Made by a program: the position numbers and the translations under genes. Below, piece after piece: positions 1,061-59,643 of a stretch of 64,000 nucleotides of DNA (within the stretch, counting starts at the first letter, position 1; every line of letters begins with the position of its first letter). This DNA is from Tubiluchus corallicola. Taxonomy: Eukaryota; Priapulida; Priapulimorpha; Priapulimorphida; Tubiluchidae. A model generated the notes under the pieces. The model had not been told where the DNA came from, did no database searches, and saw nothing but the letters and a program-made list of their open reading frames with translations. The stretch covers positions 62,001 through 126,000 of the forward strand of contig JAQGDQ010000555.1 of NCBI GenBank assembly GCA_030141605.1. The letters run 5' to 3'.

Positions 1061-1077
1061 AAATTACACGCCGACAA

Positions 1078-21949: not shown

Positions 21950-22650
21950 ACAATTACAATTGTACAATTACAATTACAATTACAATTACAATTACAATTA
22001 CAATTGTACAATTACAATTACAATTACAATTACAATTACAATTACAATTGTACAATTACAATTACAATTACAATTACAATTACAATTACAAATTACAATT
22101 ACAATTACAATTACAATTACAATTACAATTACAATTACAATTGTACAATTACAATTACAATTACAATTACAATTGTACAATTACAATTACAATTACAATT
22201 ACAATTACAATTACAATTACAATTACAATTACAATTACAATTACAATTACAATTACAATTACAATTACAATTACAATTACAATTACAATTACAATTACAA
22301 TTACAATTACAATTACAATTACAATTACAATTACAATTACAATTACAATTACAATTACAATTACAATTACAATTACAATTACAATTACAATTACAATTAC
22401 AATTACAATTACAATTACAATTACAATTACAATTACAATTACAATTACAATTATAATTGTACAATTACAATTACAATTATAATTATACAATTATAATTAT
22501 ACAATTACAATTACAATTGTACAAGTACAATTACATTTACAATTACAATTATAATTATACAATTACAATTACAATTGTACAAGTACAATTACATTTACAA
22601 TTACAATTATACAATTGCTACAATTCTACAATTACAATTACAATTACAAT
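21950..22650. repeat. (ACAATT)n hexanucleotide array
   Basis: Nearly pure 6-bp repeat over roughly 700 bp, interrupted in the first 240 bp and after 22440 by palindromic AATTGTACAATT joints and later by AATTATAATTATAC variants. The core 22180-22450 is uninterrupted. Reading frames through it (NYNYNY, QLQLQL, ITITIT) are artefacts of the unit length. Confidence 0.97.
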
Positions 22651-37678: not shown

Positions 37679-40600
37679 CTAGGAGAGAAGCTAACAAAAA
37701 CAAGGGCATTACACACATAATGTAAATATAACAAAAATGAGAGCAATATATGCAAGTATACGCCCATAGTAGAGAAAATCTTACAATAAATGAGGACATT
37801 ACAAGATTAAAACAAGAATATTTCGAATAAAAGCAGTTATTAATTTAAAAAATTAAAAATGCTTCATGAAAACGAAAGACAATTGTAGAAACAAGTTTGC
37901 ATCATCATGTGTACTTGCAAATAATTCTTCAGGGTTCTTGTAAGTAAAATTTTACTACTATGTAAAAAAGTAATAACTGTATGGATAACATCTCTTTTTA
38001 GTGATCATGATTCTACTGGAGGTTTTATTATCTTCATCTCTTAAACACTATGCTTTTATATAAAAAAATTACATAACGTCAAGATAAAAGACAAAGTGAA
38101 AACTGTTGTTTAATTCTTTTTTTATTTACATACCATGTTTAGATTCGAAATACAAATTAGCATTGTCAGTCATTGTTGATATCAAAGTTTAATACTGTAG
38201 ACTTGTACAGTAATGTTTGCACTTTGACAAAGATGACCAAAACAAGACTCATAATGCAGGCTAGCATCACAAAAATTGATATGTTCAAGCTATTTAATCA
38301 AACAAATTATAAAAAACATTTACTGTAAATGATTAACGTTCTTGAGCGTTTTTAAGAATAAAACACCCATAAGTTATTATTTCCCAAATTTGTTATTTAA
38401 TGCTAACAATGCCGATAATAATTATCCGTTTCAATAAAGAACAAAAGTTCCAATCAGATCTTATTCAAACTCATCTATCTTATTAGTCTGTTCGCCAATT
38501 TCGACTAGATAATAATACACGTTTTGGTTTCAGATTATAATGAAATCATATGTCGCATTTTATCAACTTCAAACTTGCTTAGTTTTAAGAAACATTTAGC
38601 AATTATTAGAAACAGTTTAGCAGTTATATTAAACAGATAATTAAATCAACAATTAACGAAAATAGCAGTTTTAAACTGAAATAATAGTAACAGTACTTTA
38701 CATTGAATTAAAAAATCATTACAATATATACAATATATACAAAAATGTTTACCAAGCTTTACCTTAAAAAGAAAGTAATACAAATTTCAATTTAAGTGCT
38801 GTATGACAGTAATGAATACATACCTATTTAGCGACATACAACTCATGTGAAAAACTGCAACCTGCGCATGCGTAGATTCAGTCAAAATGTCAAACTAAAC
38901 GTGTAAATCTAGAACAATCAAATTCATTACAAAACCGAATAAACAGCAAATGAAATAAACGAGACATTGAACTATTATGTTGTATAATTAACACTTGCAA
39001 AGGTTGTCAAATTTCAATCTCACAGACTGCTTTGCATATTTAACTTAGGATCTCATCAAAAGAAAAACAACACAAAAATGTTCCACCCTAAGATATGTAA
39101 AAACAGCTGGCACTTTTGCTAATTTAGAAAAGCGCCCCATGCAAAATTAAACATAAATGTTTAAGTTTATCGGTTCATATACTACAATTTTAAATTTGTA
39201 ACTAGGTATTGTTAATGATCTAGTTATCAATGGAATCAATGTTCAAACGTCAGTTACATACATCGATAACGATCAGTAGCGGCTCGTAGCTAAAATTAGT
39301 GGGGGTGCTGCAAAATTAAAATTTTTAGCCATTGTGTTAATACACTGTAAAACAAAACAAACATGTGTAATTATAATGTTGTAATTGTAATTTTAAACAA
39401 ACGGACTAATTTGAAGATAACTTTGATAAACTCTTAAACAAAAAAATGTTTTCTTACTAATAGGCTAAATTGCCTCAGCTTATTTAATGTTGTAATTGTA
39501 TTTTTAAACAAACGAACTAATTTAAACATAATCTTAATTAAACTCTTAAACAAGAAATACTATTTTCTGACTACACGGTTCTAAAGCAGGTGACAATTGA
39601 CAACACGTACTGCAATGAGCGACAGTACTCTTTCTACCTAAAGTACAGCGTCTTATCTCAGACATTCGCATGACCGCATGCGCACAGGAGCCATACAGCA
39701 CATTGCTTTAGCTGTGAAGCAATAATCAAAAGTAATGAGTGAAAATGAGGTACAGCAGTACCTATATACGAGCCGTACTAATATGGACATGAAAAACAGA
39801 TCAAATAATAATTACAATATGATACATTCCAATTTTCCAATTCTTTTCCCCGTTTCCTTCATCGTTTTTTCTTTAGACGATTCTACTTTATCGCTACAAT
39901 GAACAGAGGACAATCAAACCAAGATACTTCAAGCATCGAACAATATTTACATAGCATATTTTTATAGTCAAAAGCACACAATTTGAAAATAAAAGTCCTA
40001 AAACCCTTTCTTACCATTACAACATTTACAATTCAAAGTGCTTTACAAATACAAGATCAAAAACCAAGTTTATAAAAAGGCAGCTTAATCACAACTTAGT
40101 GACTTGTATTGACCAACAAGAGGACAAATACAGAGTGAGCCACGTAAAATGGCAACAAAAAATCCCCTAGCCATATTGCATTTGACTTACACTTGCTAGT
40201 GTTTCTCGCGCAATACGTTATTACATAATGCAACGTATTTCTCACATTGTTTGTTAAACTAAGGTAAACATAGAAATAAACTAACTAGCAAAAACTAACA
40301 TTGTAACACACCACGTAAAGTATTAATTACTCTAACGTGTACATTAATGGTGCAAATAGGTATAGCAATTTTCAAAAATTAATGACATTTTTTACAAAAC
40401 TACACGATAGTGTTGCCACACATTCATTCGTGTCATAGATTCTGACACTTCATAGATCATAAGAATCTCTGCATTAAAGGCAAGCGGTAACCAGTTATTA
40501 CCATACGTCATTGGGTTTCGGAACTTAACTGGACCATTCATATAGCACCCCCATAGCCTAGTTGTTAGTTGGCTATTTCGTTATTTTGCTAGTCATAATC

Positions 40601-40859
40601 CAACAGTTTTGTTACATTTCTGTTAAGCTGCAAACAGAAAGAAGCATATTCCAATAGACAATATTTACATAGCGTATTTACGTTCGTGTGACTAATAAGC
40701 TTTTATGACATTTATATCATCTTAGTTCGCTTTTGTCACATAATATACATAGAAACAATAATGTTAAGTACCGTTTTGCATGTAAGCAGGAACGTTTGTC
40801 ATACGCTAATACGCTAGCCTAATGGTTTGCTTTAGTAGAAGTTCTGGCTCACTTTTCCA
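37679..40859. other. AT-rich stretch, no gene recognised
   Basis: If the 37191-37678 segment is part of a spliced gene, its upstream exons should be here, but none could be supported. No arrays or transposon ends were seen. Confidence 0.45.
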
Positions 40860-41420
40860 GGAAGTTTAATCAGTTGCTTGCTTGCTGTTATGCCAGGGAT
40901 GCAGGTACAGTACAGCAAGTACGTCACGATAGCAAGCGAGAGTTTGCAGACGAAACCACATGCCGGGAGTACGGTCACCACTAACAGTTCAAGCACATTG
41001 TATGAACAACACTGTATGCCCACACTGTATCTCTACACTAGGCAGAAGAGCTACACAAGCAGCCAACAGCTAGAGGGCAGAGGTCAAGTGACCCAACGGC
41101 CATGTGTAGAGGAGTAAATCTTCCAAATCAGGAGTGGAGCCCCGAAGGCGAACCAGTGCAGCATGCTCAATGACTCCAGCAGCTCCTGCAGCCAACCTGG
41201 TGCCAAACGTATCGCTCGGCTTTCCTTTGGACTACACCAGGGAGTAAGAGAGGGGGTTCCTGTTGTCTGGGCAACTCAGGATCTCCATACACCTTGCCCA
41301 GGCGTGCGCCCCGGAGACGTACTGCTCAGCCACAGTCGATGCTGCAACTCCATCAATGTGATCAGTAACTGACTCTCTTGGTGCGAGAGAGAGAGAGAGG
41401 GGGGGGGGGGGAGGGGAGAG
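40860..41420. other. GC-richer island ending in polypurine run
   Basis: Markedly richer in G+C than its surroundings. Plus reading frames (40878-41117 and 41163-41372) have no recognised domain. It ends in (GA)n followed by a G-run at 41386-41412. It may be a transposon fragment or CpG-type promoter segment; I cannot decide. Confidence 0.3.
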
Positions 41421-42730: not shown

Positions 42731-42734
42731 TTGT

Positions 42735-43795
42735 ATGTCAGAATAGCTACCTCCTATATTTTTGTTCTTCTAAACCATGAGGTTGTATGTCAGAATGGCT
42801 GTCTTCTACATTTTAGTTCTTCTAAACCACGAGGTTGTATGTCAGAATGGCTACCTTCTACATTTTAGTTCTTCTAAACCATGAGGTTGTATGTCAGAAT
42901 GGCTGTCTTCTACATTTAGTTCTTCTAAACCACGAGGTTGTATGTCAGAATGGCTACCTTCTACATTTTAGTTCTTCTAAACCATGAGGTTGTATGTCAG
43001 AATGGCTACCTCCTATATTTTTGTTCTTCTAAACCACGAGGTTGTATGTCAGAATGGCTGTCTTCTACATTTTAGTTCTTCTAAACCACGAGGTTGTATG
43101 TCAGAATGGCTACCTTCTACATTTTAGTTCTTCTGAACCATGAGGTTGTATGTCAGAATGGCTGTCTTCTACATTTTAGTTCTTCTAAACCACGAGGCTG
43201 TATGTCAGAATGGCTACCTTCTACATTTTAGTTCTTCTAAACCACGAGGTTGTATGTCAGAATGGCTGTCTTCTACATTTTAGTTCTTCTAAACCATGAG
43301 GTTGTATGTCAGAATGGCTGTCTTCTACATTTTAGTTCTTCTAAACCACGAGGTTGTATGTCAGAATGGCTACCTTCTACATTTTAGTTCTTCAAAACCA
43401 CGAGGTTGTATGTCAGAATGGCTATCTTCTACATTTTAGTTCTTCTAAACCACGAGGTTGTGTGTCAGAATGGCTGTCTTCTACATTTTAGTTCTGCTAA
43501 ACCACGAGGTTGTGTGTCAGAATGGCTACCTTCTACACTTTAGTTCTTCAAAACCACGAGGTTGTATGTCAGAATGGCTGTCTTCTACATTTTAGTTCTT
43601 CTAAACCACGAGGTTGTATGTCAGAATGGCTACCTTCTACATTTTAGTTCTTCAAAACCACGAGGTTGTATGTCAGAATGGCTATCTTCTACATTTTAGT
43701 TCTTCTAAACCACGAGGTTGTGTGTCAGAATGGCTGTCTTCTACATTTTAGTTCTGCTAAACCACGAGGTTGTGTGTCAGAATGGCTACCTTCTA
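42735..43795. repeat. 52-bp minisatellite, left array (about 20 copies)
   Basis: Core units TTCTACATTTTAGTTCTTCT, AAACCACGAGGTTGTATGTC and AGAATGGCTACC, 52 bp each. Variants alternate (GGCTGTC, GGCTACC, GGCTATC; CACGAG or CATGAG), hinting at higher-order structure of two or more units. The same repeat separates and flanks the three 3.7-kb units to the right. Confidence 0.96.
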
Positions 43796-43934
43796 TTTTA
43801 TTATTATTTATTTATTGACCATGGTCAAAGATATATACAAAAAGTCATAAGAATCGTTTCGAGATAGTTGCAACATTTAAGAAATTTGGGCTGATCATAG
43901 TCCATAGATCACTCAATGTATGGTGTAGTAACAA

Positions 43935-45434
43935 TTAGAGACCAAAAATGGCTAGAGCATCGTGTACAAAATTACAAATATCAGCGGGATTTCCGCTGAA
44001 GAAAGTCACTAAATCATCAAATATTAAATCGGAATTGTTTCTTAAGATACGTGTTTCAGGGCATTCACATATTACGTGCAGTTCTGTTTGGATTTGTCCA
44101 CATGAACAGAGTCTTCGCTCTCTTTCAATACGGGACCAACGACCAGTTTCTATGGCAAGGTTGTGTGAGGAAAGTCTGAGCCTTGACGTTTTTATCCGTT
44201 TCAGTTCATTAACATTGTCACAGTAAATTCGATGGATAGAGAGTTCAGGGTTTAGTTGTAAGTATGTGACAAATTTCGTACGGTCAGAAGCGCGGGTCCT
44301 ATCTTTGATTCTATTCAGGTCATCATCGATAAAATCACCACGGTATCCAGTTATATTACGCAAATATCGAGCACATGGGGTGTTTGACTCGCGACACAAA
44401 TTGTAAACAATCATAAACGGATCATCAGGAATATTCACTCTTGAGCGAACACTCTTATTGAAAAAGCGAGATTGGGTGTCCTTCACAAAACCATTCAGGG
44501 AGGGAAGGCCCAACTCTATGAGACACAAATCATTAGCAGTTGTACGTCGCACACCGAGTAAACATTTGATAACACTAATATACATCCCTTGAATAGGATT
44601 AAGGTCATTGAATAGCCAAGACTCACATCCGTAAGTAATTGCAGCAAGTAGCGCGGCATTTAAAACTAACTTCTTAACTGCGAAAGGATAAGCTGAATTC
44701 TTAGAAATAAATGACACGAACTTCAGTACGTGACAATATTTGTCTTCGCAGTGTTTTTCCAGAGCGGGTTTAAATTTTCCTGTTGAGCTAAAGACAGCAC
44801 CGAGGTAAACGTAATAGTCACAGTGATTAACAGTAAGGGGGTTCACTACGAGGTCCAGACGATCAACAGCATCGCCATTAATAACCATAAATTTAGTCTT
44901 TTTTAAGTTCACCTTCATACCGGATTGATCACAGAACTCAATAAGGATACTGAGTTTTTGAATAATACCTTCTCTAGATGTTGACAATAAGATTGTATCA
45001 TCCATCAACATCAAACAGTGTAAATTTCCTAGGAAACCATCGAGACCACATCGAGACTTTAATTCACGAATAAGAGGGTTAATATACAGTGTGAAGAGGA
45101 AACAGGATGACGGAGAACCCTGCTTCACACCTAATGTAACACCAATAACGGCAGCACCAAGGACCAGCTGCGTATTCACATACATGGCAGCAAGAGCAGA
45201 AAGCATCACAAGACGACAGCCAAGAGCTCTCAAGGCCCTAATCAAACCAGAACGTGGAACTCTATCGTAAGCTTTCGAGAAGTCTACGAAAACGATATAT
45301 AATTTCCTCTTTTTAAACAGTGCATAGTCCATTAATAGTCTTAGAGTCACAATCCACTCAATGCAGGATCTACCCTTTTGGGCGCCAGCCTGCTCCCTAT
45401 CGGGTTTGAACCACATCTCTAAACGAAAAAACAA
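43935..45434 (-). CDS. Truncated LINE reverse transcriptase (unit 1)
   Basis: The 499-codon open frame begins at TTG; the first ATG is codon 7. It opens in mid-RT (EQAGAQKGR, residues 14-22). Motif A is VDFSKAYD (50-57), motif B VKQGSPSS (103-110), and the catalytic box LMDD (143-146) in place of FADD, a variant known in some invertebrate LINEs. A C-terminal CSCG...H...CEC cluster (443-458) resembles the terminal zinc-binding motif of LINE ORF2. Endonuclease and fingers are absent, so it cannot act alone. It lies about 20 bp after the glycoprotein stop codon. Confidence 0.85.
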   Translation of the reverse strand: MFFRLEMWFKPDREQAGAQKGRSCIEWIVTLRLLMDYALFKKRKLYIVFVDFSKAYDRVPRSGLIRALRALGCRLVMLSALAAMYVNTQLVLGAAVIGVTLGVKQGSPSSCFLFTLYINPLIRELKSRCGLDGFLGNLHCLMLMDDTILLSTSREGIIQKLSILIEFCDQSGMKVNLKKTKFMVINGDAVDRLDLVVNPLTVNHCDYYVYLGAVFSSTGKFKPALEKHCEDKYCHVLKFVSFISKNSAYPFAVKKLVLNAALLAAITYGCESWLFNDLNPIQGMYISVIKCLLGVRRTTANDLCLIELGLPSLNGFVKDTQSRFFNKSVRSRVNIPDDPFMIVYNLCRESNTPCARYLRNITGYRGDFIDDDLNRIKDRTRASDRTKFVTYLQLNPELSIHRIYCDNVNELKRIKTSRLRLSSHNLAIETGRWSRIERERRLCSCGQIQTELHVICECPETRILRNNSDLIFDDLVTFFSGNPADICNFVHDALAIFGL

Positions 45435-45454
45435 GTTATAGTGTTTTGATATAA

Positions 45455-46966
45455 TTATAGTTCATCTTCTGATCTTTTGGCACATTCTTTCATTTCTATA
45501 CTTTCTCCTTGAACTGCGTTTTTGTTTTTAATCTTGAATCTGATCAACTTGTACCCAATCCAAATGAGCAAAGAATTCACCTCAATACACGTGATTACCG
45601 TCATTAGCCATAGCCAATCTTTCGCAGAAGAGTAATCTTCATACCAGGCTAATGGTTCCATTTCGTGGTGAGAAATAAGTAGTGCATGAGTTTTGTTAAT
45701 TAAAGCATTTATCTCGTCGGTATAAGTAGTTAGATTATGGCTCTCCAATTTAGGTATCCAACTTTTCACCCGGTGGAGAGAATCACTACATTTGAGAAAA
45801 TATCCAGGGAGATGATACTCATTAGCTTTCTTGCATGTTAGCACAAGACTAGTGTTCTTGGGAATAATCTTTTCTGATGCTCCTGTATATCTTGATACTG
45901 TTCTTAATGAATAACTAGCCTGTCTTTGAACTAGCCACCCACCCATTAATGTAACTACTCCCCAACTTTCTGGCGACCTTTCATATTTGATAGATTGGTC
46001 AAACGGTTGGGTTTCCAAATAAGTTGGGCATACAATTACATTAAGATCTTGGCAAGATCCAGGAGGAATAATTTTAATTTCATTTATTCCCAAAATCATG
46101 TTGAATGCGTTTCCGTGGACAACCCAAGTTCCTCCTTTGACGATTGGCACATTCTGTGTCTTTACATGTACTTTGCCAGGCACTTGGATGATTTCTCTGA
46201 CATTGATTAACATCCACAGTCTTCGTGGCTCAGATTTAATGACTATAGCCCGGCTAGCTCCATAGGATAGCGGGATGCTGTTCTTTTGGTCAGACATGAG
46301 AGAATGAAACTGGGTGGGACTGATCAGTAGGGGGTCTATTTTTGAAGAGGTGATAGATTGTAGGCCATGTCCATATCGGATAGAATTTAAATAGTCGTGA
46401 AGTTTCTTCATGTCGTTAGCGTGTGCCATCATCAGGTTATGTACATTAGCATCTAACTTGCCAACAATTCTCTCTAACTCTTCTAGATCGTGGCCTAGGA
46501 TACCTATTTCTTTATTAGCTATTTCCAGTTCATGTGCTATTATCCCTTGATTGTTTCTTAATTCCCCCATTTTCTTATTTAATGAATTTATTTCTGCCCT
46601 GTTTGTAGCGCCTAAGGCTAAAGCAGCAGTCGCCTCTGCCATAGCTGCGCTGGACATAATTAATCCGAGAAATCGTTTTTTCCTGTTATTATGGGTTGAA
46701 GAATTATCTTTTTCTCGAAACTGAAAGAGATCGTAATGAATATTCCAGGCCCGGGACATATCGACTCTAACAACTTTGAAAGATTGTGCCACTTGATACC
46801 CAATGGGTTTTGGTTCTGTAATTATAATGCCATAAGACGCCAAGGCATCTTGATGTTTGTAGATTATATCTTGCGATAATTGTGGAATAATACTATTTAC
46901 ACTTATTATGGTTCCATAAGTAACAGCTGAAAGAACAAGAAGGATTGAAAGAGTATAATGACCCAT
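45455..46966 (-). CDS. Class I fusion-glycoprotein-like ORF (unit 1)
   Basis: Intact 503-codon ORF on the minus strand. It has a hydrophobic signal peptide (about 1-18), a polybasic furin-type site RKKR at 95-98, then an Ala/Gly-rich hydrophobic segment (99-120) like a fusion peptide. A long amphipathic heptad region spans about 121-195, and cysteines sit at 305, 313, 378 and 393. Sequons are at 88, 371, 411 and 424. A membrane anchor lies at about 451-474, followed by a 29-residue basic/acidic tail. This order matches envelope fusion proteins of the class I type (paramyxovirus F, baculovirus F and errantivirus Env are examples); the exact family is not identified. In a virus it would sit in the membrane and fuse it with a host cell. 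Only about 5 bp of 5' leader precedes the ATG before the satellite. Confidence 0.7.
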   Translation of the reverse strand: MGHYTLSILLVLSAVTYGTIISVNSIIPQLSQDIIYKHQDALASYGIIITEPKPIGYQVAQSFKVVRVDMSRAWNIHYDLFQFREKDNSSTHNNRKKRFLGLIMSSAAMAEATAALALGATNRAEINSLNKKMGELRNNQGIIAHELEIANKEIGILGHDLEELERIVGKLDANVHNLMMAHANDMKKLHDYLNSIRYGHGLQSITSSKIDPLLISPTQFHSLMSDQKNSIPLSYGASRAIVIKSEPRRLWMLINVREIIQVPGKVHVKTQNVPIVKGGTWVVHGNAFNMILGINEIKIIPPGSCQDLNVIVCPTYLETQPFDQSIKYERSPESWGVVTLMGGWLVQRQASYSLRTVSRYTGASEKIIPKNTSLVLTCKKANEYHLPGYFLKCSDSLHRVKSWIPKLESHNLTTYTDEINALINKTHALLISHHEMEPLAWYEDYSSAKDWLWLMTVITCIEVNSLLIWIGYKLIRFKIKNKNAVQGESIEMKECAKRSEDEL

Positions 46967-46971
46967 TTTGA

Positions 46972-47495
46972 CTTCTACATTTTAGTTCTTCAAAACCACG
47001 AGGTTGTATGTCAGAATGGCTATCTTCTACATTTTAGTTCTTCTAAACCACGAGGTTGTATGTCAGAATGGCTACCTCCTATATTTTTGTTCTTCAAAAC
47101 CATGAGGTTGTATGTCAGAATGGCTACCTTCTACATTTTAGTTCTTCTAAACCACGAGGTTGTATGTCAGAATGGCTATCTTCTACATTTTAGTTCTTCT
47201 AAACCACGAGGTTGTATGTCAGAATGGCTATCTTCTACATTTTAGTTCTTCTAAACCACGAGGTTGTATGTCAGAATGGCTCTTCTACATTTTAGTTCTG
47301 CTAAACCACGAGGTTGTATGTCAGAATGGCTATCTTCTACATTTTAGTTCTTCAAAACCACGAGGTTGTATGTCAGAATGGCTATCTTCTACATTTTAGT
47401 TCTTCTAAACCACGAGGTTGTGTGTCAGAATGGCTGTCTTCTACATTTTAGTTCTGCTAAACCACGAGGTTGTGTGTCAGAATGGCTACCTTCTA
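46972..47495. repeat. 52-bp minisatellite between units 1 and 2
   Basis: About ten copies, including one shortened unit (GGCTCTTCTAC near 47278) also present in the two later arrays. This shows that these arrays were copied together with the units. Confidence 0.95.
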
Positions 47496-47634
47496 TTTTA
47501 TTATTATTTATTTATTGACCATGGTCAAAGATATATACAAAAAGTCATAAGAATCGTTTCGAGATAGTTGCAACATTTAAGAAATTTGGGCTGATCATAG
47601 TCCATAGATCACTCAATGTATGGTGTAGTAACAA

Positions 47635-49134
47635 TTAGAGACCAAAAATGGCTAGAGCATCGTGTACAAAATTACAAATATCAGCGGGATTTCCGCTGAA
47701 GAAAGTCACTAAATCATCAAATATTAAATCGGAATTGTTTCTTAAGATACGTGTTTCAGGGCATTCACATATTACGTGCAGTTCTGTTTGGATTTGTCCA
47801 CATGAACAGAGTCTTCGCTCTCTTTCAATACGGGACCAACGACCGGTTTCTATGGCAAGGTTGTGTGAGGAAAGTCTGAGCCTTGACGTTTTTATCCGTT
47901 TCAGTTCATTAACATTGTCACAGTAAATTCGATGGATAGAGAGTTCAGGGTTTAGTTGTAAGTATGTGACAAATTTCGTACGGTCAGAAGCGCGGGTCCT
48001 ATCTTTGATTCTATTCAGGTCATCATCGATAAAATCACCACGGTATCCAGTTATATTACGCAAATATCGAGCACATGGGGTGTTTGACTCGCGACACAAA
48101 TTGTAAACAATCATAAACGGATCATCAGGAATATTCACTCTTGAGCGAACAATCTTATTGAAAAAGCGAGATTGGGTGTCCTTCACAAAACCATTCAGGG
48201 AGGAAAGGCCCAACTCTATGAGACACAAATCATTAGCAGTTGTACGTCGCACACCGAGTAAACATTTGATAACACTAATATACATCCCTTGAATAGGATT
48301 AAGGTCATTGAATAGCCAAGACTCACATCCGTAAGTAATTGCAGCAAGTAGCGCGGCATTTAAAACTAACTTCTTAACTGCGAAAGGATAAGCTGAATTC
48401 TTAGAAATAAATGACACGAACTTCAGTACGTGACAATATTTGTCTTCGCAGTGTTTTTCCAGAGCGGGTTTAAATTTTCCTGTTGAGCTAAAGACAGCAC
48501 CGAGGTAAACGTAATAGTCACAGTGATTAACAGTAAGGGGGTTCACTACGAGGTCCAGACGATCAACAGCATCGCCATTAATAACCATAAATTTAGTCTT
48601 TTTTAAGTTCACCTTCATACCGGATTGATCACAGAACTCAATAAGGATACTGAGTTTTTGAATAATACCTTCTCTAGATGTTGACAATAAGATTGTATCA
48701 TCCATCAACATCAAACAGTGTAAATTTCCTAGGAAACCATCGAGACCACATCTAGACTTTAATTCACGAATAAGAGGGTTAATATACAGTGTGAAGAGGA
48801 AACAGGATGACGGAGAACCCTGCTTCACACCTAATGTAACACCAATAACGGCAGCACCAAGGACCAGCTGCGTATTCACATACATGGCAGCAAGAGCAGA
48901 AAGCATCACAAGACGACAGCCAAGAGCTCTCAAGGCCCTAATCAAACCAGAACGTGGAACTCTATCGTAAGCTTTCGAGAAGTCTACGAAAACGATATAT
49001 AATTTCCTCTTTTTAAACAGTGCATAGTCCATTAATAGTCTTAGAGTCACAATCCACTCAATGCAGGATCTACCCTTTTGGGCGCCAGCCTGCTCCCTAT
49101 CGGGTTTGAACCACATCTCTAAACGAAAAAACAA
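47635..49134 (-). CDS. Truncated LINE reverse transcriptase (unit 2)
   Basis: 499 codons, same motifs and truncation as unit 1. It differs at residue 311 (S for P) and residue 328 (I for S). No stop or frameshift. Confidence 0.85.
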   Translation of the reverse strand: MFFRLEMWFKPDREQAGAQKGRSCIEWIVTLRLLMDYALFKKRKLYIVFVDFSKAYDRVPRSGLIRALRALGCRLVMLSALAAMYVNTQLVLGAAVIGVTLGVKQGSPSSCFLFTLYINPLIRELKSRCGLDGFLGNLHCLMLMDDTILLSTSREGIIQKLSILIEFCDQSGMKVNLKKTKFMVINGDAVDRLDLVVNPLTVNHCDYYVYLGAVFSSTGKFKPALEKHCEDKYCHVLKFVSFISKNSAYPFAVKKLVLNAALLAAITYGCESWLFNDLNPIQGMYISVIKCLLGVRRTTANDLCLIELGLSSLNGFVKDTQSRFFNKIVRSRVNIPDDPFMIVYNLCRESNTPCARYLRNITGYRGDFIDDDLNRIKDRTRASDRTKFVTYLQLNPELSIHRIYCDNVNELKRIKTSRLRLSSHNLAIETGRWSRIERERRLCSCGQIQTELHVICECPETRILRNNSDLIFDDLVTFFSGNPADICNFVHDALAIFGL

Positions 49135-49154
49135 GTTATAGTGTTTTGATATAA

Positions 49155-50666
49155 TTATAGTTCATCTTCTGATCTTTTGGCACATTCTTTCATTTCTATA
49201 CTTTCTCCTTGAACTGCGTTTTTGTTTTTAATCTTGAATCTGATCAACTTGTACCCAATCCAAATGAGCAAAGAATTCACCTCAATACACGTGATTACCG
49301 TCATTAGCCATAGCCAATCTTTCGCAGAAGAGTAATCTTCATACCAGGCTAATGGTTCCATTTCGTGGTGAGAAATAAGTAGTGCATGAGTTTTGTTAAT
49401 TAAAGCATTTATCTCGTCGGTATAAGTAGTTAGATTATGGCTCTCCAATTTAGGTATCCAACTTTTCACCCGGTGGAGAGAATCACTACATTTGAGAAAA
49501 TATCCAGGGAGATGATACTCATTAGCTTTCTTGCATGTTAGCACAAGACTAGTGTTCTTGGGAATAATCTTTTCTGATGCTCCTGTATATCTTGATACTG
49601 TTCTTAATGAATAACTAGCCTGTCTTTGAACTAGCCACCCACCCATTAATGTAACTACTCCCCAACTTTCTGGCGACCTTTCATATTTGATAGATTGGTC
49701 AAACGGTTGGGTTTCCAAATAAGTTGGGCATACAATTACATTAAGATCTTGGCAAGATCCAGGAGGAATAATTTTAATTTCATTTATTCCCAAAATCATG
49801 TTGAATGCGTTTCCGTGGACAACCCAAGTTCCTCCTTTGACGATTGGCACATTCTGTGTCTTTACATGTACTTTGCCAGGCACTTGGATGATTTCTCTGA
49901 CATTGATTAACATCCACAGTCTTCGTGGCTCAGATTTAATGACTATAGCCCGGCTAGCTCCATAGGATAGCGGGATGCTGTTCTTTTGGTCAGACATGAG
50001 AGAATGAAACTGGGTGGGACTGATCAGTAGGGGGTCTATTTTTGAAGAGGTGATAGATTGTAGGCCATGTCCATATCGGATAGAATTTAAATAGTCGTGA
50101 AGTTTCTTCATGTCGTTAGCGTGTGCCATCATCAGGTTATGTACATTAGCATCTAACTTGCCAACAATTCTCTCTAACTCTTCTAGATCGTGGCCTAGGA
50201 TACCTATTTCTTTATTAGCTATTTCCAGTTCATGTGCTATTATCCCTTGATTGTTTCTTAATTCCCCCATTTTCTTATTTAATGAATTTATTTCTGCCCT
50301 GTTTGTAGCGCCTAAGGCTAAAGCAGCAGTCGCCTCTGCCATAGCTGCGCTGGACATAATTAATCCGAGAAATCGTTTTTTCCTGTTATTATGGGTTGAA
50401 GAATTATCTTTTTCTCGAAACTGAAAGAGATCGTAATGAATATTCCAGGCCCGGGACATATCGACTCTAACAACTTTGAAAGATTGTGCCACTTGATACC
50501 CAATGGGTTTTGGTTCTGTAATTATAATGCCATAAGACGCCAAGGCATCTTGATGTTTGTAGATTATATCTTGCGATAATTGTGGAATAATACTATTTAC
50601 ACTTATTATGGTTCCATAAGTAACAGCTGAAAGAACAAGAAGGATTGAAAGAGTATAATGACCCAT
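49155..50666 (-). CDS. Class I fusion-glycoprotein-like ORF (unit 2)
   Basis: 503 codons, apparently identical in protein sequence to unit 1, with the RKKR site, fusion-peptide-like segment and membrane anchor intact. Confidence 0.7.
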   Translation of the reverse strand: MGHYTLSILLVLSAVTYGTIISVNSIIPQLSQDIIYKHQDALASYGIIITEPKPIGYQVAQSFKVVRVDMSRAWNIHYDLFQFREKDNSSTHNNRKKRFLGLIMSSAAMAEATAALALGATNRAEINSLNKKMGELRNNQGIIAHELEIANKEIGILGHDLEELERIVGKLDANVHNLMMAHANDMKKLHDYLNSIRYGHGLQSITSSKIDPLLISPTQFHSLMSDQKNSIPLSYGASRAIVIKSEPRRLWMLINVREIIQVPGKVHVKTQNVPIVKGGTWVVHGNAFNMILGINEIKIIPPGSCQDLNVIVCPTYLETQPFDQSIKYERSPESWGVVTLMGGWLVQRQASYSLRTVSRYTGASEKIIPKNTSLVLTCKKANEYHLPGYFLKCSDSLHRVKSWIPKLESHNLTTYTDEINALINKTHALLISHHEMEPLAWYEDYSSAKDWLWLMTVITCIEVNSLLIWIGYKLIRFKIKNKNAVQGESIEMKECAKRSEDEL

Positions 50667-50671
50667 TTTGA

Positions 50672-51195
50672 CTTCTACATTTTAGTTCTTCAAAACCACG
50701 AGGTTGTATGTCAGAATGGCTATCTTCTACATTTTAGTTCTTCTAAACCACGAGGTTGTATGTCAGAATGGCTACCTCCTATATTTTTGTTCTTCAAAAC
50801 CATGAGGTTGTATGTCAGAATGGCTACCTTCTACATTTTAGTTCTTCTAAACCACGAGGTTGTATGTCAGAATGGCTATCTTCTACATTTTAGTTCTTCT
50901 AAACCACGAGGTTGTATGTCAGAATGGCTATCTTCTACATTTTAGTTCTTCTAAACCACGAGGTTGTATGTCAGAATGGCTCTTCTACATTTTAGTTCTG
51001 CTAAACCACGAGGTTGTATGTCAGAATGGCTATCTTCTACATTTTAGTTCTTCAAAACCACGAGGTTGTATGTCAGAATGGCTATCTTCTACATTTTAGT
51101 TCTTCTAAACCACGAGGTTGTGTGTCAGAATGGCTGTCTTCTACATTTTAGTTCTGCTAAACCACGAGGTTGTGTGTCAGAATGGCTACCTTCTA
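50672..51195. repeat. 52-bp minisatellite between units 2 and 3
   Basis: Same ten-copy array as 46972-47495, including the short unit near 50978. Confidence 0.95.
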
Positions 51196-51334
51196 TTTTA
51201 TTATTATTTATTTATTGACCATGGTCAAAGATATATACAAAAAGTCATAAGAATCGTTTCGAGATAGCTGCAACATTTAAGAAATTTGGGCTGATCATAG
51301 TCCATAGATCACTCAATGTATGGTGTAGTAACAA

Positions 51335-52834
51335 TTAGAGACCAAAAATGGCTAGAGCATCGTGTACAAAATTACAAATATCAGCGGGATTTCCGCTGAA
51401 GAAAGTCACTAAATCATCAAATATTAAATCGGAATTGTTTCTTAAGATACGTGTTTCAGGGCATTCACATATTACGTGCAGTTCTGTTTGGATTTGTCCA
51501 CATGAACAGAGTCTTCGCTCTCTTTCAATACGGGACCAACGACCGGTTTCTATGGCAAGGTTGTGTGAGGAAAGTCTGAGCCTTGACGTTTTTATCCGTT
51601 TCAGTTCATTAACATTGTCACAGTAAATTCGATGGATAGAGAGTTCAGGGTTTAGTTGTAAGTATGTGACAAATTTCGTACGGTCAGAAGCGCGGGTCCT
51701 ATCTTTGATTCTATTCAGGTCATCATCGATAAAATCACCACGGTATCCAGTTATATTACGCAAATATCGAGCACATGGGGTGTTTGACTCGCGACACAAA
51801 TTGTAAACAATCATAAACGGATCATCAGGAATATTCACTCTTGAGCGAACAATCTTATTGAAAAAGCGAGATTGGGTGTCCTTCACAAAACCATTCAGGG
51901 AGGGAAGGCCCAACTCTATGAGACACAAATCATTAGCAGTTGTACGTCGCACACCGAGTAAACATTTGATAACACTAATATACATCCCTTGAATAGGATT
52001 AAGGTCATTGAATAGCCAAGACTCACATCCGTAAGTAATTGCAGCAAGTAGCGCGGCATTTAAAACTAACTTCTTAACTGCGAAAGGATAAGCTGAATTC
52101 TTAGAAATAAATGACACGAACTTCAGTACGTGACAATATTTGTCTTCGCAGTGTTTTTCCAGAGCGGGTTTAAATTTTCCTGTTGAGCTAAAGACAGCAC
52201 CGAGGTAAACGTAATAGTCACAGTGATTAACAGTAAGGGGGTTCACTACGAGGTCCAGACGATCAACAGCATCGCCATTAATAACCATAAATTTAGTCTT
52301 TTTTAAGTTCACCTTCATACCGGATTGATCACAGAACTCAATAAGGATACTGAGTTTTTGAATAATACCTTCTCTAGATGTTGACAATAAGATTGTATCA
52401 TCCATCAACATCAAACAGTGTAAATTTCCTAGGAAACCATCGAGACCACATCTAGACTTTAATTCACGAATAAGAGGGTTAATATACAGTGTGAAGAGGA
52501 AACAGGATGACGGAGAACCCTGCTTCACACCTAATGTAACACCAATAACGGCAGCACCAAGGACCAGCTGCGTATTCACATACATGGCAGCAAGAGCAGA
52601 AAGCATCACAAGACGACAGCCAAGAGCTCTCAAGGCCCTAATCAAACCAGAACGTGGAACTCTATCGTAAGCTTTCGAGAAGTCTACGAAAACGATATAT
52701 AATTTCCTCTTTTTAAACAGTGCATAGTCCATTAATAGTCTTAGAGTCACAATCCACTCAATGCAGGATCTACCCTTTTGGGCGCCAGCCTGCTCCCTAT
52801 CGGGTTTGAACCACATCTCTAAACGAAAAAACAA
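51335..52834 (-). CDS. Truncated LINE reverse transcriptase (unit 3)
   Basis: 499 codons, motifs as in unit 1. P311 as in unit 1, I328 as in unit 2. No stop or frameshift. Confidence 0.85.
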   Translation of the reverse strand: MFFRLEMWFKPDREQAGAQKGRSCIEWIVTLRLLMDYALFKKRKLYIVFVDFSKAYDRVPRSGLIRALRALGCRLVMLSALAAMYVNTQLVLGAAVIGVTLGVKQGSPSSCFLFTLYINPLIRELKSRCGLDGFLGNLHCLMLMDDTILLSTSREGIIQKLSILIEFCDQSGMKVNLKKTKFMVINGDAVDRLDLVVNPLTVNHCDYYVYLGAVFSSTGKFKPALEKHCEDKYCHVLKFVSFISKNSAYPFAVKKLVLNAALLAAITYGCESWLFNDLNPIQGMYISVIKCLLGVRRTTANDLCLIELGLPSLNGFVKDTQSRFFNKIVRSRVNIPDDPFMIVYNLCRESNTPCARYLRNITGYRGDFIDDDLNRIKDRTRASDRTKFVTYLQLNPELSIHRIYCDNVNELKRIKTSRLRLSSHNLAIETGRWSRIERERRLCSCGQIQTELHVICECPETRILRNNSDLIFDDLVTFFSGNPADICNFVHDALAIFGL

Positions 52835-52854
52835 GTTATAGTGTTTTGATATAA

Positions 52855-54366
52855 TTATAGTTCATCTTCTGATCTTTTGGCACATTCTTTCATTTCTATA
52901 CTTTCTCCTTGAACTGCGTTTTTGTTTTTAATCTTGAATCTGATCAACTTGTACCCAATCCAAATGAGCAAAGAATTCACCTCAATACACGTGATTACCG
53001 TCATTAGCCATAGCCAATCTTTCGCAGAAGAGTAATCTTCATACCAGGCTAATGGTTCCATTTCGTGGTGAGAAATAAGTAGTGCATGAGTTTTGTTAAT
53101 TAAAGCATTTATCTCGTCGGTATAAGTAGTTAGATTATGGCTCTCCAATTTAGGTATCCAACTTTTCACCCGGTGGAGAGAATCACTACATTTGAGAAAA
53201 TATCCAGGGAGATGATACTCATTAGCTTTCTTGCATGTTAGCACAAGACTAGTGTTCTTGGGAATAATCTTTTCTGATGCTCCTGTATATCTTGATACTG
53301 TTCTTAATGAATAACTAGCCTGTCTTTGAACTAGCCACCCACCCATTAATGTAACTACTCCCCAACTTTCTGGCGACCTTTCATATTTGATAGATTGGTC
53401 AAACGGTTGGGTTTCCAAATAAGTTGGGCATACAATTACATTAAGATCTTGGCAAGATCCAGGAGGAATAATTTTAATTTCATTTATTCCCAAAATCATG
53501 TTGAATGCGTTTCCGTGGACAACCCAAGTTCCTCCTTTGACGATTGGCACATTCTGTGTCTTTACATGTACTTTGCCAGGCACTTGGATGATTTCTCTGA
53601 CATTGATTAACATCCACAGTCTTCGTGGCTCAGATTTAATGACTATAGCCCGGCTAGCTCCATAGGATAGCGGGATGCTGTTCTTTTGGTCAGACATGAG
53701 AGAATGAAACTGGGTGGGACTGATCAGTAGGGGGTCTATTTTTGAAGAGGTGATAGATTGTAGGCCATGTCCATATCGGATAGAATTTAAATAGTCGTGA
53801 AGTTTCTTCATGTCGTTAGCGTGTGCCATCATCAGGTTATGTACATTAGCATCTAACTTGCCAACAATTCTCTCTAACTCTTCTAGATCGTGGCCTAGGA
53901 TACCTATTTCTTTATTAGCTATTTCCAGTTCATGTGCTATTATCCCTTGATTGTTTCTTAAGTCCCCCATTTTCTTATTTAATGAATTTATTTCTGCCCT
54001 GTTTGTAGCGCCTAAGGCTAAAGCAGCAGTCGCCTCTGCCATAGCTGCGCTGGACATAATTAATCCGAGAAATCGTTTTTTCCTGTTATTATGGGTTGAA
54101 GAATTATCTTTTTCTCGAAACTGAATGAGATCGTAATGAATATTCCAGGCCCGGGACATATCGACTCTAACAACTTTGAAAGATTGTGCCACTTGATACC
54201 CAATGGGTTTTGGTTCTGTAATTATAATGCCATAAGACGCCAAGGCATCTTGATGTTTGTAGATTATATCTTGCGATAATTGTGGAATAATACTATTTAC
54301 ACTTATTATGGTTCCATAAGTAACAGCTGAAAGAACAAGAAGGATTGAAAGAGTATAATGACCCAT
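52855..54366 (-). CDS. Class I fusion-glycoprotein-like ORF (unit 3)
   Basis: 503 codons with two substitutions relative to units 1 and 2, at residue 81 (I for F) and 135 (D for E). The cleavage site and membrane anchor are unchanged. Confidence 0.7.
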   Translation of the reverse strand: MGHYTLSILLVLSAVTYGTIISVNSIIPQLSQDIIYKHQDALASYGIIITEPKPIGYQVAQSFKVVRVDMSRAWNIHYDLIQFREKDNSSTHNNRKKRFLGLIMSSAAMAEATAALALGATNRAEINSLNKKMGDLRNNQGIIAHELEIANKEIGILGHDLEELERIVGKLDANVHNLMMAHANDMKKLHDYLNSIRYGHGLQSITSSKIDPLLISPTQFHSLMSDQKNSIPLSYGASRAIVIKSEPRRLWMLINVREIIQVPGKVHVKTQNVPIVKGGTWVVHGNAFNMILGINEIKIIPPGSCQDLNVIVCPTYLETQPFDQSIKYERSPESWGVVTLMGGWLVQRQASYSLRTVSRYTGASEKIIPKNTSLVLTCKKANEYHLPGYFLKCSDSLHRVKSWIPKLESHNLTTYTDEINALINKTHALLISHHEMEPLAWYEDYSSAKDWLWLMTVITCIEVNSLLIWIGYKLIRFKIKNKNAVQGESIEMKECAKRSEDEL

Positions 54367-54371
54367 TTTGA

Positions 54372-54745
54372 CTTCTACATTTTAGTTCTTCAAAACCACG
54401 AGGTTGTATGTCAGAATGGCTATCTTCTACATTTTAGTTCTTCTAAACCACGAGGTTGTATGTCAGAATGGCTACCTCCTATATTTTTGTTCTTCAAAAC
54501 CATGAGGTTGTATGTCAGAATGGCTACCTTCTACATTTTAGTTCTTCTAAACCACGAGGTTGTATGTCAGAATGGCTATCTTCTACATTTTAGTTCTTCT
54601 AAACCACGAGGTTGTATGTCAGAATGGCTATCTTCTACATTTTAGTTCTTCTAAACCACGAGGTTGTATGTCAGAATGGCTCTTCTACATTTTAGTTCTG
54701 CTAAACCACGAGGTTGTATGTCAGAATGGCTACCTTCTATGCAAT
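54372..54745. repeat. 52-bp minisatellite, right array
   Basis: About seven copies, truncated relative to the inter-unit arrays. It ends at GGCTACCTTCTA, directly against the stop-codon side of the next ORF. Confidence 0.93.
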
Positions 54746-55813
54746 TTATGCAATTTTGAAATTGGTCGTGGTTGTTTGGAATTCATCATCACTGTCTTCG
54801 ATATACTTGTTTCCTACTGTGTGTCTGGTTACTTGATCCCTTTGAAAGTTTGCTCTTTCTATGGAGAGGTTTTCCATTGCCTGTCTTACATCTTCAGAGC
54901 CCTCATTTCTCGCCGCTGTAGCGGCTTCTCTTCTGATGATTTTTCCTAGCTGTTTCGCGAATTCGTCGATTGTTGGGGAAACATCAGGCTTTTTATATTG
55001 CCAAACACTGTATCGAGGGTCGTTTGTGTTATCCTTATCGGAAATGATGTGCAATAATACTGTTGTGAGTACTCTGTTATTGTTAGTACTTATGTTGGTG
55101 AATGCATTTTGGTTAAAGTTTTTGGCGTACAAATAGGATTTGTCGGGTCTCCCAACACAAGTTTGCCAGAACCTTTGGAGCCGGAGCAACTCTTTTATAG
55201 TCCATGAGCACCCTATTTTCTTTAACAACTCATTTCTGTCCAGTTTTGTAGACTCTGTGGCTTGTGCTAACAATTGGGGAAGTGTAAGTGAGGCCCACGT
55301 TAGGTGTCTCATTACAGCAAAGTTTACATACCGATAGAGTTCTTCTCCCCGACCAGTTATCCTTCCGCTCCTTACACAAAGCCCAAACGTCATAAGCGCT
55401 GTTGCGCAGACCTCCGGACGTGAAAACACTGTATAGTAAGCATTCCATAGTGACTCGTTGACTTTGAGTCCTAGTGGCCTATAATTCCACATCATTGAAT
55501 TCTCAGTTTCTTCACTCAGTACTTTGTTTCTTACTTGTTTCGATTTGCCTGCCGCTCGAGTGAGAACCATTACAAGAAAACATATTGAGTCTAATTCCCA
55601 TTCGTAGATGTCGGTAGCTGCCGTTTCAAAATAACTGTCGACTTTTTCCCACACCTCAATGATGTCGTTGGTCATGACATCTGGTGATCGTTGAGGAAGT
55701 TTAGATAGTTCATGGAGTAATTTGCCTGTGTCACCATCTGATCCGGAGGTTCCAGGCTCTAGATCTTCTCCCTTTGATCCAGCATTCAATTTGGCATAGC
55801 TGCCCAAAGTCAT
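54746..55813 (-). CDS. Unidentified ORF, possibly viral nucleoprotein-type
   Basis: From ATG 55813 the minus frame gives 355 codons; the frame is open to an earlier ATG at 56083, but that extension is AT-rich, hydrophobic and lies in repeat-like sequence. The protein is mainly helical in composition. It has a short acidic N-terminus (EDLEPGTSGSDGD), a core with VMVLTRAAGKSKQVRNK and GRGEELYRYVNFAVM, and an acidic C-terminus (EDSDDEF). It has no signal peptide, zinc finger or enzyme motif. Size, composition and closeness to the fusion-protein units are compatible with a negative-strand RNA virus nucleoprotein or a capsid-type protein captured in the genome, but I do not recognise the family. 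It is intact and intronless. Confidence 0.45.
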   Translation of the reverse strand: MTLGSYAKLNAGSKGEDLEPGTSGSDGDTGKLLHELSKLPQRSPDVMTNDIIEVWEKVDSYFETAATDIYEWELDSICFLVMVLTRAAGKSKQVRNKVLSEETENSMMWNYRPLGLKVNESLWNAYYTVFSRPEVCATALMTFGLCVRSGRITGRGEELYRYVNFAVMRHLTWASLTLPQLLAQATESTKLDRNELLKKIGCSWTIKELLRLQRFWQTCVGRPDKSYLYAKNFNQNAFTNISTNNNRVLTTVLLHIISDKDNTNDPRYSVWQYKKPDVSPTIDEFAKQLGKIIRREAATAARNEGSEDVRQAMENLSIERANFQRDQVTRHTVGNKYIEDSDDEFQTTTTNFKIA

Positions 55814-56083
55814 AGTTTTGTGTTGGAGCGGAAAGTCTTGCGAGAACTCATCACACAAATTATTACCAGGTGTTACACATTTTGGATCACGTACAGTATT
55901 ACCAGATGTTACACATTTTTTGCAAAAGACAAATTTACAATTATATGTAATAGTAAAACATATGTAACGAGCTACAAATTGGATTAGTACTATACAAGGA
56001 GAATGCATTACAGGATAAGATACATATTCACAATTATACGATAATAAAAATATATAAGGTAAGATTAGGTAGACATCAAACAT
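55814..56083 (-). other. Possible N-terminal extension or leader of the 54746-55813 ORF
   Basis: In-frame 90 codons with hydrophobic stretches and a short duplicated KCVTSGNT / KCVTPGNN segment (DNA repeat GTGTTACACATTTT at 55872 and 55907). Coding status undecided. Confidence 0.3.
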
Positions 56084-56390
56084 TCGAGTTCGCCATTCTA
56101 CTGGTGTTTGCTAAAAGAAATTATTGAGTTTACTAAGAGGTTACTTTTTTATCTCACTAGTACACATTAGGGGTAAACATCAAACATTCCAGTTCGCCAT
56201 TCTACTGGTCTTTGCTAAAAGAAATTATTGAGTTTACTAAGGGGTTACTTTTTTATCTCATTAGTACACACTAGGGGTAAACATCAAACATTCGAGTTCG
56301 CCATTCTACTGGTGTTTGCTAAAAGAAATTATTGAATTATTAATGATTAGTTTTTATCAGCCGTGCTTTTGCTTAAGTCTCAACCTGGTG
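56060..56390. repeat. 104-bp tandem repeat (about 2.5 copies)
   Basis: Copies start CATTC-AGTTCGCCATTCTA at 56081, 56185 and 56289. A fourth lies at 59067, at the start of the segmental duplicate. Confidence 0.9.
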
Positions 56391-58663: not shown

Positions 58664-59066
58664 AAGAACCCTGACAGCTCGCATTAGCAAAAATTATTTA
58701 TATATTTAATTATGTATTTACTTATATTTTTTTATTTATTCAGTCAACAAGGAGTATTTAAATTTTACAAGGTGCGATACAAAAGTATAGTGTCGTGACA
58801 TTAAATAGGGGAGACCCGGGTAAAGTGGACATTTACGGGTTTTCGCTCATAAAGTTCAAGACGTTTGATCTGTAACAATCAATTACATGCCCTATTCTTC
58901 CGTAGGAAACTCTGCTATATTCATGTGGTAAAAACTTATAATTACTATTACTCGTTTAACCGATAATTCCGAAATACGAAACCAAAATTTCTAGCGCAAA
59001 GTGGATCTTTTACGACCATTATGGATCATACGTATGGGCATTAGTACACGTTAGGAGTAAACATCA
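58664..59066. other. Non-coding; transposon-like fragment
   Basis: GGGGAGACCCGGGTAAAGTG near 58808 looks like a transposon-derived terminus, but the other end was not found. Confidence 0.3.
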
Positions 59067-59643
59067 GACATTCGAGTTCGCCATTCTACTGGTGTTTGCT
59101 AAAAGAAATTATTGAATTATTAATGATTAGTATTTATCAGCCGTGCTTTTGCTTAAGTCTGTACCTGGTGAAGTGACTCAAATCAAGCACAGTGTTCATG
59201 TTTACGGTCTAAAACATCGAAAATGAATTGAAAAACATAATTATTTTTCATATACACTTTTATACATAATTGTCAGATATATTTAAAATAAAATGGGGAA
59301 ATGATGTTCAAAAAGTTGCGCAACAGTTTGTTTTAAAATGCTGAAATTAATAAGTAAAAACAATTTTTAATGACTGTTATAGACTTTTGCGTCTAACTGT
59401 TTTAATTGCTCCATTAGCTTATCTATTAGATAAGCAGTTAACTCATTGTTTTTTATCTAGATTTCTGCTGGATTTCTACTGTGTTTACCTATCTTGAGGG
59501 CAGGCTGCTTTCTATAGTATGTCTACAATAGACGTAATAGCCATATGATGGCGATAATTTTTCTCATTACTAACCTAACACTGCATGAGCTGAAATTTTC
59601 CATGTAACTGCACACACGTTAAAGATATTAAAATTTAGCTTAG

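What the first reader, a model, noticed from the sequence alone, without database searches (positions are those of the whole stretch)
43796..54371. Tandemly triplicated 3.7-kb unit joining a viral-type fusion glycoprotein ORF to a truncated LINE RT
Three units repeat with an exact 3,700-bp period, each with an intact 503-codon class I fusion-protein-like ORF and an intact 499-codon RT fragment in the same sense, embedded in a 52-bp minisatellite. Protein differences between copies are one or two residues per ORF. Directly seen: the copies, ORFs and motifs. Inferred: very recent amplification by unequal exchange in the satellite, which created a multi-copy envelope gene. I know of no described element with this composition.
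Basis: partly seen in the sequence, partly recalled or inferred. Interest (0 to 1): 0.87.

Follow-up and report, generated by a model that had tools for sequence, protein, structure and literature searches.

The report
Tripled viral glycoprotein–LINE fusion copy
A eukaryotic, probably animal, genome holds a copy of an RNA virus's surface-protein message that seems to have been pasted in by a cellular jumping gene and later tripled inside an array of short repeats.

Summary
In detail: three head-to-tail units (3,700-bp period, minus strand), each with an intact 503-codon glycoprotein ORF and a 499-codon RT ORF, separated by a 52-bp satellite. The glycoprotein has class I fusion anatomy. It is viral: in a relative on contig C43 it lies directly before a mononegavirus L gene, with a gene-end/gene-start signal between, and a truncated nucleoprotein gene (Rhabdo_ncap_2) lies beside the window array. 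The RT part is the 3' end of a young LINE. The unit starts where the viral mRNA starts, runs from the viral 3' end into LINE sequence, keeps the LINE 3' end, and sits in the satellite with a 6-bp duplication. This fits one LINE insertion whose reverse transcriptase jumped from LINE RNA to viral mRNA; unequal exchange in the satellite then tripled it. The junction was found only in these three units, so it is one event, not a mobile element. Two other places show virus–LINE joins, one with two viruses; three other contigs carry arrays of this gene. Youth explains the open frames; no selection after insertion was detected. Both the LINE-made viral copy and the LINE chimera are known kinds; joined in one insertion they are a new variant.

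The parts
52855..54366 (-). viral glycoprotein ORF, unit C (503 aa)
49155..50666 (-). viral glycoprotein ORF, unit B (identical protein to A)
45455..46966 (-). viral glycoprotein ORF, unit A: hydrophobic N-terminus, RKKR at residues 95-98, hydrophobic stretch from 99, heptad pattern from 123, hydrophobic segment about 450-475
   Evidence: Fusion_gly match below cut-off
46967..46975 (-). start of the viral mRNA copy (GAAGTCAAA before ATG), unit A; its GAAG overlaps the satellite edge; same in units B and C at +3,700 and +7,400
45426..45454 (-). viral 3' UTR ending ACTTGT (to 45431) followed by five T (45430-45426), unit A
43796..45425 (-). LINE 3' part, 1,630 bp, with the intact 3' end and AAT-rich tail, unit A
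47496..49125 (-). LINE 3' part, unit B
51196..52825 (-). LINE 3' part, unit C
46972..46977 (-). TAGAAG, satellite copy at the 5' edge of the insertion (unit A)
43790..43795 (-). TAGAAG, satellite copy at the 3' edge of the insertion (unit A)
42731..43795 (.). 52-bp satellite, outer array on the LINE side
46972..47495 (.). 52-bp satellite, internal array 1, recombinant of the two outer arrays
50672..51195 (.). 52-bp satellite, internal array 2, same as array 1
54372..54739 (.). 52-bp satellite, outer array on the nucleoprotein side
54746..56083 (-). ORF with a 5'-truncated viral nucleoprotein (viral from about residue 74); residues 1 to about 54 are a host repeat
   Evidence: Rhabdo_ncap_2 E 4.1e-6, 26.9 bits, cut-off 25

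Best explanation
The unit is an endogenous viral element: a reverse-transcribed copy of the glycoprotein mRNA of an unclassified mononegavirus, joined to the 3' part of a young LINE. Proposed steps: (1) the LINE protein nicked the satellite and began target-primed reverse transcription at the 3' end of LINE RNA; (2) after 1.63 kb the enzyme left the LINE RNA and went on along a viral glycoprotein mRNA, entering at the end of the message body and running to its 5' end; (3) the cDNA was closed into the satellite, leaving a 6-bp duplication (TAGAAG) and a 4-base overlap (GAAG); (4) later, unequal exchange between satellite arrays on either side gave three copies. Shown: the junctions, the relatedness of both halves, the recombinant satellite arrays. 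Inferred: the jump (RNA ligation before insertion would look the same), the exchange, and the lack of function.
For: Viral side: in C43 the gene is followed by CTTGTAAAAAAATGAAGTCAAAATG and an ORF that is 68% identical over 682 nt to the start of a frame carrying Mononeg_RNA_pol; in C464 the first 276 residues run into an L piece; N fragment next door. The window copy starts at the same GAAGTCAAA, as do C1996 and one C43 copy. LINE side: the sequence from 45425 matches 14 other places at 96-100%; its 3' tail resembles those of the four other copies whose 3' end was seen. Single event: both outer edges of the composite lie at the same satellite phase with a TAGAAG duplication, and the flanks join to a normal monomer. 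Amplification: internal arrays match one outer array for 361 bp and the other for about 215 bp with 2 mismatches.
Against: Of four other LINE copies one (C612) shows a 6-bp duplication, three show none clearly. In a 52-bp repeat the phase agreement is weak evidence by itself. The viral part ends in T residues where mRNA would have A; this is unexplained. The N copy abuts the satellite at the same phase without LINE sequence, which the model does not explain beyond a shared nick site. The glycoprotein itself has no relative outside this genome in the searches run.
Confidence: 0.77

Rival explanations
1. Two insertions in turn: a viral mRNA copy entered the satellite first, and a 5'-truncated LINE later landed at its 3' end in the same direction.
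For: 5'-truncated copies of this LINE exist (C612). The T residues between the halves could belong to a target site.
Against: No viral remnant, A tail or second duplication lies beyond the LINE 3' end; satellite follows at once in the phase of the 5' edge. The join sits at the very end of the viral message body (CTTGT). Two further virus-LINE joins occur in the same sense.
Confidence: 0.12
2. A kept, working gene array: the host uses the glycoprotein (blocking envelope, fusogen, or antisense small RNAs) and selection favoured more copies.
For: Three intact copies here; an intact full-length frame at C1996 and a long open frame at C1349. Four of the eight contigs with matches carry neighbouring repeats of the gene.
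Against: LINE part only 0.55-1.05% from five other copies, so open frames are expected without selection. Both changes among the window copies are non-synonymous. Arrays also form of L pieces and of broken glycoprotein pieces. No expression data.
Confidence: 0.1
3. The three units are an assembly error, one real copy expanded through the satellite.
For: Satellite-flanked repeats are hard to assemble; units A and B are identical over the glycoprotein.
Against: The units carry three different sets of variants: 5 columns private to A, 1 to B, 3 to C; two alleles of one copy cannot give three. Other contigs show arrays of the same gene without this satellite.
Confidence: 0.08
4. An ordinary host membrane protein or a retroviral envelope, not a mononegavirus gene.
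For: The Fusion_gly match is below cut-off (E 0.0053) and nothing outside this genome was found.
Against: L directly downstream with a gene-junction signal in C43, L fusion in C464, N beside the window array; no CX6CC motif.
Confidence: 0.03

Closest known systems
Endogenous bornavirus-like elements (LINE-1-made copies of mononegavirus mRNAs)
   Same: A copy of one mononegavirus mRNA, starting at the mRNA start, placed by LINE machinery (for bornavirus-like elements: passage in PMC8554740; details otherwise recalled).
   Different: Here the LINE's own 3' end is part of the insertion, and the gene is a glycoprotein gene; the copy was then tripled in a satellite.
Chimeric LINE retrocopies: mammalian LINE-1 with U6, U3, 28S and other RNAs (PMC13174262, passages); Magnaporthe bipartite and tripartite chimeras (PMC2104539, abstract)
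   Same: Foreign RNA upstream, 5'-truncated LINE with its 3' end downstream, same sense; C1996 resembles a tripartite case.
   Different: The foreign RNA is viral mRNA. In PMC13174262 the words virus and viral do not occur in the main text.
Aedes viral integrations linked to LTR retrotransposons (PMC5497376, passages)
   Same: RNA-virus pieces next to retroelements, with template switching proposed.
   Different: There mainly Ty3/gypsy elements flank; here a LINE is fused to the viral message. (C1349 here lies in a BEL/Pao-like gag region.)
Class I viral fusion proteins such as paramyxovirus F
   Same: Cleavage motif, hydrophobic stretch behind it, strong heptad helix, C-terminal membrane segment.
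   Different: Pfam match below cut-off, no solved relative, fold model unusable.

Membership tests
Endogenous viral element of Mononegavirales | sequence homology to a mononegavirus gene | tested here: met
   Indirect for the glycoprotein: next to L in C43 with gene junction; direct for N (just above cut-off; two relatives below it) and L.
Endogenous viral element of Mononegavirales | integrated in host chromosome, with host sequence on both sides | tested here: met
   Satellite on both sides, inside a contig of host-type repeats.
Named mononegavirus family (Rhabdo-, Borna-, Paramyxoviridae and others) | L clearly nearest to one family | tested here: inconclusive
   Two L pieces rank different solved L chains first; no virus protein library of animal viruses was on hand.
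Chimeric LINE retrocopy | foreign RNA copy fused directly to a 5'-truncated LINE in the same sense | tested here: met
   Join at 45425/45426 with five T between CTTGT and LINE.
Chimeric LINE retrocopy | LINE 3' end intact and target duplication around the whole composite | tested here: met
   AAT-rich tail and TAGAAG on both sides; short, and inside a repeat.
Class I viral fusion protein | signal, cleavage site, fusion peptide, heptad repeat, membrane anchor in order | tested here: met
   Sequence features only.
Class I viral fusion protein | fold | tested here: inconclusive
   Single-sequence model, mean pLDDT 33.6.
Mobile composite element | same junction at several unlinked loci | tested here: not met
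   Only the 3 window units of 20 scored matches span it (the tool calls its counts lower bounds).
Retrovirus or errantivirus envelope gene | gag-pol and LTRs around it, or CX6CC motif | tested here: not met
   No CX6CC; the frames next to it are N and LINE RT; LTRs were not searched for separately.

The most novel reading that the evidence does not exclude
In this host, LINE reverse transcription repeatedly splices pieces of RNA viruses (mononega-, phlebo- and flavi-like) onto LINE 3' ends in the germ line, sometimes two viruses in one insertion, and such copies are then amplified in tandem at several loci because arrays of viral glycoprotein and polymerase pieces serve antiviral defence, as a small-RNA source or as blocking envelope.
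Probability: 0.13. Interest if true: 0.86.

Novelty: new variant of a known kind. Interest (0 to 1): 0.62.

Why it matters
How RNA viruses without a reverse transcriptase enter germ lines is mostly inferred. A copy that begins at the viral mRNA start and ends inside the LINE that probably inserted it points directly to the enzyme and the step. The C1996 locus suggests that two viruses' RNAs can be caught in one insertion. The repeated arrays make it testable whether viral pieces multiply by chance or are kept for defence. The copies also record an otherwise unseen mononegavirus lineage with a class I-like protein just before L.

Tried and rejected
Tried without result: glycoprotein against 5.8 billion proteins (the 7,995 candidates sharing most words were scored, none passed), N alignment against the same (likewise none of 7,995), N alignment in viral contigs (32 pattern matches, none confirmed), glycoprotein alignment in viral contigs (no usable stretch), glycoprotein against solved structures (none), NCBIfam (nothing relevant for the viral proteins). 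Single-sequence fold of the glycoprotein: mean pLDDT 33.6, so no fold search was run. Host naming: COX1 was not found in the assembly; the LINE protein search gave 456 proteins, 120 listed, without organism names.

Considered and rejected: retroviral env element, host membrane protein, mobile composite element (reasons in rivals and membership test). My first count of 3 changes between two C43 glycoprotein copies was too high: only 1 lies in the shared 814 bases, the others are past the end of the shared part.

Papers: seven searches showed me no report of a LINE fused to an endogenous RNA-virus copy as one genomic insertion. There I saw listings and the starts of abstracts; of four papers I saw passages and of one the abstract and outline. 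This does not prove that none exists. Nearest mention seen: an HBx-LINE1 chimeric RNA and bornavirus-like elements, both cited in PMC8554740.

Full report
Observation. Searches confirm three minus-strand units with glycoprotein and RT ORFs, and four stretches of a 52-bp satellite. In register at 3,700 bp, 9 of 3,749 compared columns differ among the units: 5 private to A, 1 to B, 3 to C. Two lie in the glycoprotein and change residues 81 and 135 of copy C. Reads were not available, so an assembly error cannot be excluded, but three distinct variant sets do not fit two alleles of a single copy.

The glycoprotein. Pfam gives a Fusion_gly match at residues 87-115 below its cut-off (E 0.0053), among six other weak matches that I take as chance. 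Features run in class I order: hydrophobic N-terminus, one RKKR at 95-98, a hydrophobic stretch from 99, a heptad pattern best from residue 123 (contrast 5.22; 200 shuffles: mean 2.24, maximum 3.48), a hydrophobic segment at about 450-475, four N-glycosylation motifs, no CX6CC. No sequence relative was found outside this genome and the fold model is unusable.

It is viral. In its own genome the glycoprotein has 25 match rows on 8 contigs (the tool calls such counts lower bounds). In C43 (L018) it is followed by CTTGTAAAAAAATGAAGTCAAAATG and a new ORF. That ORF had no convincing Pfam match by itself, but it is 68% identical over 682 nt to the start of a frame in L053, and that frame carries Mononeg_RNA_pol (C43:132924-134441, E 5e-65). 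So the string reads as gene end plus gene start, and the glycoprotein lies directly before L. In C464 the gene runs after residue 276 into an L piece. In C394 an ORF with weak coiled-coil matches (P by position only) precedes it, with a run of 33 A and then TGAAGTCAAAATG. In the window the neighbouring ORF 54746-56083 matches Rhabdo_ncap_2 just above its cut-off (4.1e-6); longer relatives at C1349 and C1570 match the same family below the cut-off (0.0054 and 2.3e-5) and reach further upstream than the window copy. L pieces match solved L chains of several kinds without a clear nearest family; the family is left open.

Several entries. Between loci synonymous differences are saturated (pS 0.85-0.99) while pN is 0.11-0.23, which is divergence under purifying selection, most simply in the virus before entry. 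The C2181 copy is closer (91-93% nt) and carries stops. Within arrays, both changes in the window glycoproteins and the single change in 814 shared bases of two C43 copies are non-synonymous. This gives no sign of selection after entry, on very few events.

The LINE half. With a 501-base query across the join, 3 of 20 matches cover the whole query, all in the window; 14 match only from position 276 on or later (window 45425) at 96-100%; 3 match only the glycoprotein side. One longer copy (C1790, L024) has a 680-aa RT frame, and the window part is its residues 185-680. Against four copies the window LINE part differs at 9-17 of 1,620-1,630 bases, against a fifth (C850) at 10-12 of 1,151; the units differ from each other at 2-4 of 1,630. 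At five positions all three units share a base absent from every compared copy that covers the position. The insertion is young and the tripling younger; no rate is known for this host, so I give no years.

One chimeric insertion. On the minus strand the order is satellite ..AAAATGTAGAAG, TCAAAATG.. glycoprotein, stop..ACTTGT, TTTTT, CGTTTAGAG.. LINE, its AAT-rich 3' end, then TAGAAGGTAGCC.. satellite. GAAGTCAAA is what follows the gene-end signal in C43; the C1996 copy and one C43 copy also begin exactly there, while C2181 and the other C43 copies do not, and C464 has a variant of it. The viral edge CTTGT is what precedes the A run in C43 and C1996. The flanks join to a normal monomer when one TAGAAG is dropped. 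Of four other LINE copies only C612 shows a 6-bp duplication clearly. The five T are unexplained. The N copy also meets the satellite at TAGAAGGTA, which may mean a shared nick site.

Recurrence. C1996 (L013) reads on one strand: glycoprotein message through the gene junction, a piece with Phlebovirus_G1 (4.4e-8), then a divergent LINE 3' part (40% aa over 177 residues, 9e-29). C43 (L018) has Flavi_DEAD pieces (6.7e-8, and 0.0059 below cut-off) followed by a LINE 3' part (56% over 59 residues). I looked for LINE RT with one query in L004 and in the loci from L012 on. Besides the fetched LINE copies and these loci, only distant matches in L040 and elsewhere in the window appeared; thus the fetched C464, C394, C2181, C1349, C2173, C1570, C1207 and C719 stretches showed none. 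Other LINE clades would be missed. The C1349 copy lies antisense in a BEL/Pao-like gag region (PF03564), between direct repeats of it.

Tandem arrays. Of the 8 contigs with glycoprotein matches 4 have neighbouring repeats: C42 (3,700 bp), C464 (about 2.2 kb, six places), C43 (3.29 kb, two copies, a third about 9 kb off), C394 (723-745 bp, five). L pieces form arrays too: three in C43 at 3,210 and 3,113 bp, six in C464. N showed one place on each of four contigs. The C464 stretch tested has no minisatellite, so satellites are not needed for arrays. In the window the route can be read: the internal arrays match one outer array for 361 bp and the other for about 215 bp with 2 mismatches, as unequal exchange predicts. 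Whether arrays are commoner for viral pieces than for other DNA here was not tested.

Known or new. LINE-made mononegavirus copies and LINE chimeras with cellular RNAs are known kinds; Aedes integrations are linked to LTR elements and template switching. Their combination in one insertion I did not see in seven searches. I call it a new variant of a known kind.

Noticed in passing
window 55924-56335 and 59039-59457: A host repeat with about 104-bp tandem units lies upstream of the N fragment and again at 59 kb; other genomic copies run on past window 55924, where the N insert interrupts it.
   Followed up: partly
window 54720-54760 and 43790-43800: The N copy and the LINE 3' end both meet the 52-bp satellite at the same phase (TAGAAGGTA), though the N copy has no LINE part.
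   Followed up: partly
L020 about 7079-7111 (contig C394): A run of 33 A between a P-like ORF and the gene start of the glycoprotein; it may be a fossil of a two-gene transcript with poly(A) between the genes, or a grown A run. Each array unit has its own A run.
   Followed up: partly
L018 about 4985-5020 (contig C43): One glycoprotein copy starts at GAAGTC right behind a pyrimidine-rich stretch ending in CAG, like a splice acceptor.
   Followed up: no
L018 7445-9040 (contig C43) and L013 3427-3816 (contig C1996): Flavivirus-like helicase pieces and a phlebovirus-like glycoprotein piece: the genome holds copies of several RNA-virus groups.
   Followed up: partly
contig C1207:12682-13452 and 40529-41299: The same L fragment on opposite strands 28 kb apart, with the same kinds of stops: a large inverted duplication.
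   Followed up: no
window 1-1063, 8250-9075, 21945-22650, 30479-36704: The window is rich in minisatellites of many unrelated periods, from 6 to 112 bp.
   Followed up: no
window 45426-45430 and the same place in units B and C: Five T stand where a viral mRNA would have A; added T during the jump or a tail of U on the viral RNA are both guesses.
   Followed up: no
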